From assembly GCF_002154695.1 (NCBI RefSeq), contig NZ_MTAV01000025.1, forward strand, positions 1 to 37,226: 37,226 bases of DNA, written 5' to 3'. This DNA is from Nostoc sp. T09 (lineage in GTDB: Bacteria > Cyanobacteriota > Cyanobacteriia > Cyanobacteriales > Nostocaceae). This document shows positions 20,230-22,601 of the stretch, piece by piece; the stretch's first letter is position 1; the number at the start of each line of letters is the position of its first letter. The translations under genes were made by a program, and so were the position numbers. Under the pieces are notes generated by a model, which was not told the origin of the DNA, did not search any database, and saw nothing but the letters and a program-made list of their open reading frames with translations.

Positions 20230-21318
20230 ATGTATCAAGTTAATCAAAATCAGATAGTAAATTCATCTTGCGAAAATAGCCCACGTTTGGCGCTGACATT
20301 AGGAGATCCGGCGGGAATTGGTCCAGAGGTGATTTTAAAAGCTTTGGCTGATCCAGATGTAAGTCAAAACTTTGATGTGACAGTGGTAGGAAATTTAGAT
20401 TTATTAATACAAACTTACACAAAATTGACTTTCATCAATAATCAGACTCCCTTAGCAAATCCAGCAAAATTGTCAGTTATTGATGTGCCATTGCCTAGAA
20501 AAATTAAAGATGAAATGATCATCGGCATAGGTAATAAAGCTAGTGGTGCAGCTAGTTTTGCTTATATGGAATATGCGATCGCCCAAACACTAGCTGGTAA
20601 ATTTGATGGCATTGTCACTGGTCCGATCGCTAAATCAGCTTGGAAAGCTGCGGGGTACAATTATCCAGGGCAAACGGAACTTTTAGCTGAAAAATCGGGT
20701 GTTGAGCGCTTTGGGATGTTATTTGTAGCGCGATCGCCTTACACTGGTTGGACACTCCGCACTTTGCTGGCGACTACACATATACCTTTACGTCAAGTAG
20801 CGGATACTCTAACACCGCAGTTGTTAACCAAGAAACTAGATTTGCTGGTGGAGTGTTTAGAGAAAGATCTTGGCATTAAGGAAGCGAGAATTGCGATCGC
20901 GGGTTTAAATCCCCACAGCGGCGAACAGGGACAACTAGGAAGCGAAGAAATAGATTGGTTAATTCCCTGGTTAGAACAAGAACGCCAAAAGCGCCCAAAT
21001 TTACAGATAGAGGGACCAATACCACCGGATACGATGTGGGTTAAACCTGGTCAAGCTTGGTATGGCAATACTCACAGCCAGAACCCGGCTGATGGCTACT
21101 TGGCACTTTACCACGACCAAGGCTTAATACCTGTAAAGTTGATGGCTTTTGACCGTGCAGTTAATACCACGATAGGTCTACCTTTTGTGAGAACTTCGCC
21201 GGATCATGGGACAGCCTTTGATATTGCGGCTAAGGGAATTGCTGATGCTACGAGTATGAAAGCAGCAATTGAGTTAGCGGCGGAGTTGGTGAGTCAAAGG
21301 CTAAGTCAAACTAAATAA
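20230..21318 (+). CDS. pdxA: 4-hydroxythreonine-4-phosphate dehydrogenase
   Basis: It oxidises 4-phosphohydroxy-L-threonine in the DXP-dependent pyridoxal-phosphate pathway. Motifs: [10 protein letters not shown] (about 26-35), [42 protein letters not shown] and the closing [16 protein letters not shown]. Metal-binding His residues in ATTHIPL, YHDQG and SPDHG are kept. It is 362 aa, full length. The TAA overlaps the ATG of the next gene (TAATG), so translation of pdxA and the DUF4365 gene is coupled, although their functions look unrelated. No Shine-Dalgarno sequence is evident at ATG 20230. Confidence 0.94.
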
Positions 21319-21821
21319 TGAGCCTCAATACCCAAAAAGAAGATTTCAGTTATGCGTATGTATATGCCGTCTCCGCAACTGCTGGCTATTCTCTACAAGC
21401 AGCCACACGTAGATTAGATGACAGCGGCATCGACGCTACAATCACTGTACCAGGAAAAATTAACTCCAAGCGTCTGCCTAGATTTGACGTACAAATTAAA
21501 TGTACATCCCAAGACGTTCTCAGAGAAACATCCATCAAATACCGACTAAGCACTAAAAATTATGATGAACTTCGTGAAGACGACCCTTTCGTGCCACAAC
21601 TATTAATAGTCGTCTTGGTGCCAGAAGAGATAAGAGACTGGTTATCTCAAACCCAAGAATCCTTATGTCTTAAACGCTGCGGTTACTGGCTATCCTTGCG
21701 CGAACAACCACCGATTGATAACAAGACTTCCATCACCGTGGAGATTCCTCGTCAAAATATATTTAGCCCCGACGCACTCAAAATCATAATGGAACGCATC
21801 GCTGTAGGAGAATCCCTATGA
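21318..21821 (+). CDS. DUF4365 protein, predicted PD-(D/E)XK-type nuclease
   Basis: A 167-aa protein with the DUF4365 layout: an N-terminal acidic residue (Glu8), a helix with AVSATAGYSLQ, then DDSGID39ATI and D57-V-Q59-I-K61. The D...QxK arrangement is the restriction-endonuclease-like active site in its Gln variant. DUF4365 is found alone or fused in many bacteria, often near mobile or defence genes, and is predicted to cut nucleic acid. Its ATG overlaps the pdxA stop, and its own stop overlaps the start of the 178-aa gene (ATGA). A nuclease/partner pair is plausible; activity and target are unknown. Confidence 0.82.
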   Translation: MSLNTQKEDFSYAYVYAVSATAGYSLQAATRRLDDSGIDATITVPGKINSKRLPRFDVQIKCTSQDVLRETSIKYRLSTKNYDELREDDPFVPQLLIVVLVPEEIRDWLSQTQESLCLKRCGYWLSLREQPPIDNKTSITVEIPRQNIFSPDALKIIMERIAVGESL

Positions 21822-22354
21822 CAGCTATATTCCCGGATGTTGAAAAGTTCAAATATCTTGACCCGCTACAGGTAGAAGCCTACTTAGTCGCGCATGGTTG
21901 GCAGCAACAGCAATGTCAGGGTGATAAAGCTTCAATTTGGACTCTAGACGGTTTTGAAATTTTACTTCCTCTCAAACCAGAAATTATCGACTTTTCTCGT
22001 CGCATGGGCGAAGTCGTGGAAACTCTCGCTTTCGCAGAAACCAAATCGCAACTGGAAATTTTAGGTGAATTAATTACAAATGCACCCAACACCAGCATCC
22101 AAGCAGTCGTCACGCAAATCGCCACACCCAACGCCGATAAACTCAGCGGGGAAATCACTCTTCTTGGCATCGTTATTGAGAAACTGCGTCCCATTCATAC
22201 TGAACTAGCTGATCGGGACTACATTCTCGCGCTTAAGGCTTATCAAGAACGCTTGCCTATTTACTGCACAGGTGACTTAATCAAGGAAAACGGTATATTC
22301 ATTCTCAAAAATCCCCACCACTTTAGCTTGGATGATACTGGATACTATTCCTAG
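21818..22354 (+). CDS. Unrecognised 178-aa partner of the DUF4365 gene
   Basis: I cannot assign a family. Two parts are visible. The N-terminal part (about 10-90) has LDPLQVEAYLVAHGW and FEILLPLKPEIIDFSRRMGE, then a helix VVETLAFAETKSQLEILGELI; similar patterns recur in bacterial hypothetical proteins. The C-terminal part (about 110-172) looks beta-rich and small: SGEITLLGIVIEKL, then ALKAYQERLPIYCTGDL and FILKNPHHF. No signal, membrane span or catalytic motif is seen. The gene overlaps the DUF4365 stop by four bases (ATGA), so the two proteins are made together and may form a complex, for example nuclease plus specificity or control subunit. That role is inference. Confidence 0.8.
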   Translation: MTAIFPDVEKFKYLDPLQVEAYLVAHGWQQQQCQGDKASIWTLDGFEILLPLKPEIIDFSRRMGEVVETLAFAETKSQLEILGELITNAPNTSIQAVVTQIATPNADKLSGEITLLGIVIEKLRPIHTELADRDYILALKAYQERLPIYCTGDLIKENGIFILKNPHHFSLDDTGYYS

Positions 22355-22414: not shown

Positions 22415-22601
22415 GTAATAAGTTAATGAAACCCGTTCGCGGGATTGAAACTTACTGGCGGATGATGGAGGAACATCCATCGATGCGACTTTCAAATTAA
22501 TGAAACCCGTTCGCGGGATTGAAACAAATTATCGGCTTCTCCCGTGGTCAGAAAATCATGCTGGCTTTTAAATTAATGAAACCTGTTCGCGGGATTGAAA
22601 C
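22415..22601 (+). CRISPR. Orphan CRISPR mini-array, three 37-nt repeats
   Basis: The repeat core, 29 bases, starts TTAATGAAACCCGTTCGCGG and ends GATTGAAAC. It lies at 22423-22451, 22497-22525 and 22573-22601. Repeats 2 and 3 also share the 8-base prefix CTTTYAAA (22489 and 22565), giving 37 nt; repeat 1 has lost this prefix. Repeat 3 has one C-to-T change in the CCCG stem. Spacers of 37 and 39 nt are 22452-22488 and 22526-22564. The ATTGAAAC end is the usual crRNA 5' handle, implying plus-strand transcription. No cas gene is in the window. Confidence 0.85.

What the first reader, a model, noticed from the sequence alone, without database searches (positions are those of the whole stretch)
21318..22354. 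Coupled DUF4365 nuclease-like gene and unknown 178-aa partner beside a CRISPR remnant
Three genes overlap stop-to-start (pdxA TAATG, then ATGA). The last two are a predicted PD-(D/E)XK protein with a D39...D57-x-Q-x-K61 site and a protein of no family I know. Coupling implies fixed stoichiometry, as in nuclease plus specificity or immunity subunits. They sit directly before an orphan CRISPR array. This is a candidate two-gene defence or nucleic-acid-processing module riding on a housekeeping gene.
Basis: partly seen in the sequence, partly recalled or inferred. Interest (0 to 1): 0.7.

Follow-up and report, generated by a model that had tools for sequence, protein, structure and literature searches.

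The report
Roaming nuclease gene and its guardian
Two overlapping genes in a Nostoc-like cyanobacterium encode a likely DNA-cutting enzyme and a partner protein that probably keeps it in check; the pair moves between plasmids and chromosomes and looks like a compact version of a predicted but untested anti-phage system.

Summary
In detail: pdxA, a 167-aa DUF4365 gene (A) and a 178-aa gene (B) overlap, before three orphan CRISPR repeats. A matches PADLOC's candidate PDC-M02A (E 1e-56); B matches only the two ends of PDC-M02B (E 1e-34), a compact form. The CRISPR and pdxA links look incidental: in 145 related genomes the pair sits in many contexts (behind plasmid parA operons, inside type I restriction operons, beside tyrosine recombinases), at pdxA only in the window and one sister, where a plasmid Rep gene adjoins it. 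A has the DUF4365 catalytic motif; B is predicted to be an N-domain plus an OB fold. The N-domain recurs as DUF4365 partner alone (~100 aa), with the OB fold, or with longer tails. Decay is lopsided: B intact/A broken at 46 of 114 sites, the reverse at 3; 45 of 45 genomes with intact A have intact B, while 18 of 61 with intact compact B lack intact A; one set of orphan B orthologues is under purifying selection. Best reading: a mobile toxin-antitoxin-like nuclease module for defence or plasmid upkeep, in which B restrains A. Function is untested; whether B inhibits or activates A is open.

The parts
20230..21318 (+). pdxA, the host gene at whose 3' end the pair sits (incidental neighbour)
   Evidence: Pfam PF04166 1e-98; relatives have pdxA without the pair
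21318..21821 (+). Gene A: DUF4365 (DREN-type PD-(D/E)XK) nuclease-like protein, 167 aa; PDC-M02A
   Evidence: Pfam PF14280 2.7e-24; PADLOC PDC-M02A 1e-56; model of a natural A-B fusion from a relative matches SPARDA DREN-APAZ chains
21420..21434 (+). D35-x-G37-x-D39, part of the predicted active site of A
   Evidence: sequence; D39 invariant in 23 A proteins; DxGxD...QxK motif named in PMC11297309 (passages)
21492..21500 (+). Q59-x-K61, part of the predicted active site of A
   Evidence: invariant in 23 A proteins; compare Q60 and K62 of NbaSPARDA (PMC12205087, passages)
21818..22354 (+). Gene B: compact PDC-M02B partner, 178 aa
   Evidence: PADLOC PDC-M02B 1.3e-34, two stretches: residues 1-87 on profile 1-91 of 380, and (other model) 104-167 on 313-376 of 391; ATGA overlap with A
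21839..22072 (+). B N-domain (residues 8-85), recurrent partner domain of DUF4365
   Evidence: AlphaFold model, mean pLDDT 88.6; the same domain alone is the partner in a second DUF4365 group
22079..22330 (+). B C-domain (residues 88-171), predicted OB fold
   Evidence: beta1-2-3-alpha-beta4-5 order; many Foldseek hits to OB-fold proteins (PolC, RPA, SSB, Teb1), probabilities mostly 0.8-1.0 but E 0.007-0.1
22415..22601 (+). Three-repeat CRISPR remnant, not part of the module
   Evidence: unique in the assembly; repeat absent from sister genome G141

Best explanation
A and B are a mobile, toxin-antitoxin-like nuclease module of the PDC-M02 kind. A is a DUF4365 (DREN-type PD-(D/E)XK) nuclease; B is its cognate guard. 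B's N-domain binds A and holds it idle (inferred); B's OB-fold tail senses a nucleic-acid signal of invasion, replication stress or plasmid loss (inferred). When B is diverted or lost, A degrades DNA, which stops the phage or kills the plasmid-free cell (inferred from other DUF4365 effectors). The pair tends to sit close behind resident genes of the same direction and is probably read through from them (inferred; promoters were not tested). It travels on plasmids and probably entered the pdxA locus with an integrated plasmid. Shown here by sequence: family, overlap, spread, contexts, catalytic motif, lopsided decay, selection on one set of orphan B genes. Not shown: nuclease activity, A-B binding, inhibition, defence.
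For: PADLOC profiles for both genes. Motif invariance; DUF4365 proteins degrade DNA or are toxic elsewhere (passages: PMC10810196, PMC11297309, PMC12205087). One natural A-B fusion. Plasmids: 17 PLSDB records with at least 80% of B, all of cyanobacterial genera; ParA plus a small protein upstream at 7 of 124 sites (lower bound) and 10 of 80 named loci (the sets overlap). Pair between hsdS-like and hsdR-like genes at 6 of 124 sites (Pfam for three of them). Nearest upstream ORF codirectional 38 of 47, downstream 25 of 49. Sister genome: Rep_1 gene next to the pair. Decay, 114 sites: 50 both intact, 46 B intact/A broken or gone, 3 A intact/B broken, 15 both broken; 30 solo-B clades on a B tree. 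45 of 45 genomes with intact A have an intact B (2 of them the long form); 18 of 61 with intact compact B have no intact A of this group. Orphan orthologues L122/L123/L263: dN/dS 0.15-0.22 at dS 0.41-0.52.
Against: No activity data for PDC-M02 in anything read here. In type II toxin-antitoxin operons the antitoxin usually comes first (recalled); here A is first. In NbaSPARDA the DREN domain alone shows no detectable activity and works as a tetramer in a filament (passages), so A might be harmless without B. B decays too: 29 rows of short B fragments against 7 of A were left unfetched (counted by eye). A, as the 5' gene, could suffer more from events at the insertion border. Orphan B genes are not more constrained than paired ones (median dN/dS 0.27 against 0.22; the close orphan pair L283/L295 0.45 at dS 0.09). 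Two of the 18 genomes without intact A (G001, G044) hold a DUF4365 gene of the second group. The A-B arrangement in the fusion model is not reliable (pTM 0.57).
Confidence: 0.55

Rival explanations
1. Nuclease plus activator or targeting subunit: B is not an inhibitor but brings A to nucleic acid through its OB fold, or assembles A into active oligomers, as the Ago-APAZ filament does for DREN in SPARDA.
For: Predicted OB fold in B; DREN alone undetectable, active as a tetramer (passages); fixed order and pairing; natural fusion.
Against: A subunit that only serves A should decay once A is gone, but B stays intact at 46 sites with A broken or gone, and the L122/L123/L263 orthologues are under purifying selection although two of their three genomes show no A match.
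Confidence: 0.27
2. Selfish mobility or DNA-rearrangement pair, comparable with XisH/XisI or a homing endonuclease, with no defence role.
For: Up to 10 matches per genome, many sites, frequent decay; I-Ssp6803I among the fold hits (E 0.02) and likened to DREN in PMC12205087 (passage).
Against: XisH/XisI profiles do not match A/B (hhalign probability 0.2); embedding in restriction and partition operons; no common target sequence noticed at the 5' borders (by eye only).
Confidence: 0.1
3. A housekeeping pair tied to pdxA or to the CRISPR remnant.
For: Overlap with pdxA and position of the repeats.
Against: pdxA found in 142 of 145 genomes, the pair beside it in two; the sister with the pair at pdxA has no such repeat in its genome.
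Confidence: 0.02

Closest known systems
PDC-M02 (PADLOC phage defence candidate, M02A + M02B)
   Same: Both genes match, same order, overlapping. Long-form relatives occur in a Leptospira phage, in mycobacterial prophage records and on an Entomospira plasmid among DUF262, HicA and Abi genes.
   Different: B is 178 aa against profiles mostly of 360-412 positions; the middle part (with an RLGHT..GS-like motif in most long forms) is missing. No validation was found in what was read.
SPARDA (short pAgo + DREN-APAZ)
   Same: A belongs to the same nuclease domain (DUF4365/DREN) with corresponding D/Q/K residues.
   Different: B gives no SPARDA chain among the 50 listed fold hits, and the direct neighbours are PdxA and an M1 peptidase, not an Argonaute.
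EAT16, a DUF4365 toxin linked to an eCIS of Photorhabdus
   Same: DUF4365 with DxGxD...QxK; toxic in E. coli, and three of the four residues mattered when mutated (passages).
   Different: One two-domain protein; a B-like partner was not looked for.
XisH/XisI
   Same: Nuclease-like gene plus small partner, many copies and orphan partners in the same genome (11 XisI matches).
   Different: No profile similarity for either gene.
Type II toxin-antitoxin modules
   Same: Plasmid-borne overlapping pair; presumed toxin never without a partner in the genome, partner often alone.
   Different: Gene order (recalled rule); the antitoxin-like role of B is inferred.

Membership tests
PDC-M02 | First gene matches an M02A profile | tested here: met
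   E 1e-56
PDC-M02 | Second gene matches an M02B profile | tested here: met
   E 1.3e-34, N- and C-terminal stretches only
PDC-M02 | M02B at full length with its middle region | tested here: not met
   178 aa, no stretch in the middle; long forms aligned. Hence filed as a variant, not a standard member
PDC-M02 | Protection against phage | not testable with these tools
   0 papers in the library hold the name PDC-M02
DUF4365 / DREN nuclease | Pfam PF14280 above cut-off and D...QxK residues | tested here: met
   86.3 bits against 24.3
DUF4365 / DREN nuclease | PD-(D/E)XK fold | tested here: met
   All 11 hits at E 0.001 or better are SPARDA chains; the listing does not say which part aligns, I infer the A half; only 4 listed SPARDA hits have rmsd under 6. 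A half has block pLDDT 58-86. No sequence match of the A profile to solved chains
SPARDA | APAZ domain and short Argonaute with the nuclease | tested here: not met
   no SPARDA chain in the 50 listed hits of B; direct neighbours PdxA and M1 peptidase
XisH/XisI | Homology of A to XisH and of B to XisI | tested here: not met
   hhalign probability 0.2 for both; only 3 XisH and 8 XisI sequences, all of this genome
Toxin-antitoxin module | Intact toxin gene only with an intact partner gene in the genome | tested here: met
   45 of 45 genomes
Toxin-antitoxin module | Toxicity of A alone, rescue by B | not testable with these tools
   needs an expression assay

The most novel reading that the evidence does not exclude
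B's ~90-residue N-domain is a general inhibitor of DUF4365 nucleases that evolution couples to exchangeable tails (none, an OB fold, a middle part plus OB-like end, or a PDC-M63B-like tail), giving nuclease guards with different triggers; orphan B genes act as immunity or anti-addiction genes against incoming A-B plasmids.
Probability: 0.35. Interest if true: 0.75.

Novelty: new variant of a known kind. Interest (0 to 1): 0.55.

Why it matters
PDC-M02 is a predicted system without a known mechanism in what I read. The cyanobacterial form strips the partner to two small domains, and a second DUF4365 group strips it to one, so a minimal guard can be tested directly. The lopsided decay makes a clear prediction (A harmful alone, B protective alone) and would connect the DREN nuclease of SPARDA to a guide-free control system that rides on plasmids, partition operons and restriction operons.

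Tried and rejected
Rejected: coupling to pdxA; CRISPR association (a crude detector found no other 3-repeat array that I would call CRISPR next to the pair, its four hit loci were not examined further); XisH/XisI homology. Presence in IMG/VR: two scans, 200 and 43 pattern matches, no relative confirmed (low sensitivity). Sequence match to solved chains: none for A at E 1, best 0.29 for B. I first looked at 'stops inside' in the genome hit tables; some of those stops were the gene's own end (e.g. G011), so I replaced that by a six-frame HMM scan of fetched DNA. The idea that the pair lacks its own promoter rests on codirectional neighbours (simple ORF caller, no control genes) and on upstream sequences read by eye; no promoter scan was run. 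Rows dropped before the decay count: 10 of 124 sites (4 at contig ends; 6 with long B, one of these also at an end). 29 rows of short B fragments and 7 of short A fragments (counted by eye, no full-length match among them) were never fetched. The 12 sites of the second DUF4365 group were handled apart (11 with both genes whole). The six hsdS/hsdR sites form one flank group, so they are not six independent insertions; at L273 another gene lies between hsdS and the pair.

Full report
What is there. The coordinates and overlaps are right. A (21318-21821) is DUF4365 by Pfam. B (21818-22354) has no Pfam, NCBIfam or PHROGs family at E 1. In PADLOC, A is PDC-M02A and B is PDC-M02B, with B matching the beginning and the end of ~380-position profiles and nothing in between. 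No paper in the library names PDC-M02 (library limits apply); 10 papers name DUF4365, of four of which I saw passages. For PADLOC candidates in general I saw passages of three papers; none of those passages treats PDC-M02.

Spread. In 145 genomes of the family, B matches in 68 and A in 63 at E 1e-3, up to 10 matches each in one genome. A scan of GTDB contigs with the B alignment confirmed 95 relatives; the 80 kept all have cyanobacterial titles. In 292 genomes spread over the phylum 26 match at 1e-10; among the listed places the full compact form is confined to family codes f1 and f6, while matches in more distant genomes lie in frames of 379-403 aa or are partial. Among 72,556 plasmids 21 match, 17 over at least 80% of B (Nostoc, Tolypothrix, Calothrix, Microchaete); weaker matches lie in Methylobacterium, Pigmentibacter and Entomospira. 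In phage records, long-form pairs are genes 1-2 of a M. abscessus prophage record (a second record gives the same match) and lie in Leptospira phage LE1.

How it sits. Flanking DNA of 124 sites falls into 78 groups by nucleotide similarity, an upper bound on distinct contexts because some flanks are short. Between subfamily-1 sites with different neighbours, similarity ends a few to some 16 bases before A's start codon (by eye). The nearest upstream ORF runs the same way in 38 of the 47 intact pairs that have one (22 within 100 bases), the nearest downstream one in 25 of 49. Recurrent neighbours: ParA plus a small protein upstream (7 of 124 sites, a lower bound since many stretches are short; 10 of 80 named loci; ParA-type domain); a phage-integrase family protein as next downstream ORF (11 of 49; in most sites the same recombinase); hsdS-like before and hsdR-like behind (6 of 124 sites, one flank group, A broken in two of them; Pfam confirms both genes at L148 and L152 and hsdS at L284). 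In G141 the pair at pdxA is followed by a Rep_1 plasmid replication gene where the window has the CRISPR repeats, so the pair probably came with an integrated plasmid. The 98-aa ORF between them looks HigA-like to me (recalled, untested).

What the proteins are. A: D34, D39, Q59 and K61 are invariant in 23 A proteins. NbaSPARDA DREN uses D41, Q60, K62 (PMC12205087, passages); in EAT16, toxic in E. coli, three of the four residues of DxGxD...QxK mattered when mutated (PMC11297309, passages); TmuRE-Ago degrades DNA nonspecifically after target recognition (PMC10810196, passages). The folded natural fusion (pLDDT 82, pTM 0.57) gives 11 hits at E 0.001 or better, all SPARDA chains; I-Ssp6803I and EcoRV follow at about 0.02, mixed with OB-fold proteins. 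Most of the SPARDA alignments span both halves at rmsd over 20 A and say little beyond the nuclease half. B: the model of the window protein has pLDDT 88.6 and pTM 0.73, an alpha/beta N-domain and an OB-like C-domain. OB hits have high Foldseek probability but none has E under 0.001, and the first-ranked chain aligns at rmsd 12; DNA binding is an inference. The N-domain got no convincing match.

Modularity. A second DUF4365 group (about 30% identical to A) is followed by a 99-105 aa protein that matches only the first ~100 positions of B; both genes are whole at 11 of 12 such sites, and the one partner scanned matches only the start of M02B profiles. Three long partners (L137-L139, 71-91% identical to one another's first) have the same N-domain; L137, the one scanned, continues as PDC-M63B. 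So the N-domain is the recurrent companion of DUF4365 here.

Decay. Scanning 124 sites in six frames and dropping 10, 50 have both intact, 46 only B, 3 only A (L110, L296, L308; at L296 B is broken only near its end, at L308 a 110-aa N-domain frame remains), 15 neither. Of the 46, 32 keep a remnant of A, so those are losses; the window's own genome has such a site (L115). A B tree of 96 rows needs at least 25 changes between paired and solo and shows 30 solo clades with a midpoint root. A 46:3 split has a coin-toss probability of 7e-11, but the sites are not all independent. Orphan orthologues L122, L123, L263 lack A altogether; dS 0.41-0.52, dN/dS 0.15-0.22; two of their genomes, G028 and G100, have no A match, the third (G074) has an intact A elsewhere. 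Against this, orphan B genes overall are no more constrained than paired ones (medians 0.27 and 0.22), and L283/L295 give 0.45 at dS 0.09. The pattern is what one expects of an antitoxin or immunity protein and not of a subunit that only serves A; it does not exclude a separate use of B.

Verdict. Ordinary in that it belongs to a catalogued candidate; new in its compact form, in the modular partner, and in the decay pattern that points to B as guard.

Noticed in passing
window 22452-22488: First CRISPR spacer matches cyanobacterial plasmids (14 records; best 97% over 36 bases, e.g. Nostoc sp. UHCC 0926 plasmid pn2, in a hypothetical gene), so the remnant seems to hold an anti-plasmid spacer. 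The second spacer gave no good plasmid match; phages were not searched.
   Followed up: partly
G000 C210 12196-12714 (L003, L115): The same genome has a second B (55% identical) with only a 24-residue C-terminal remnant of A upstream.
   Followed up: yes
L165-L175: The genome has 11 XisI matches; full or partial XisH was seen upstream of only three in the ORF listing, an orphan-partner pattern like that of B.
   Followed up: partly
L218:6882-8534: Orphan B fused in frame behind a GHMP-kinase-like protein (550 aa) in Nostoc paludosum FACHB-159.
   Followed up: partly
L137:5500-6591: Long partner whose tail matches PDC-M63B, linking two PADLOC candidates.
   Followed up: no
L119, L127, L128, L132, L134, L261 and others: A nearly identical tyrosine recombinase lies convergent, mostly 8-45 bases behind B, at about a dozen sites; it may help move the pair.
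   Followed up: partly
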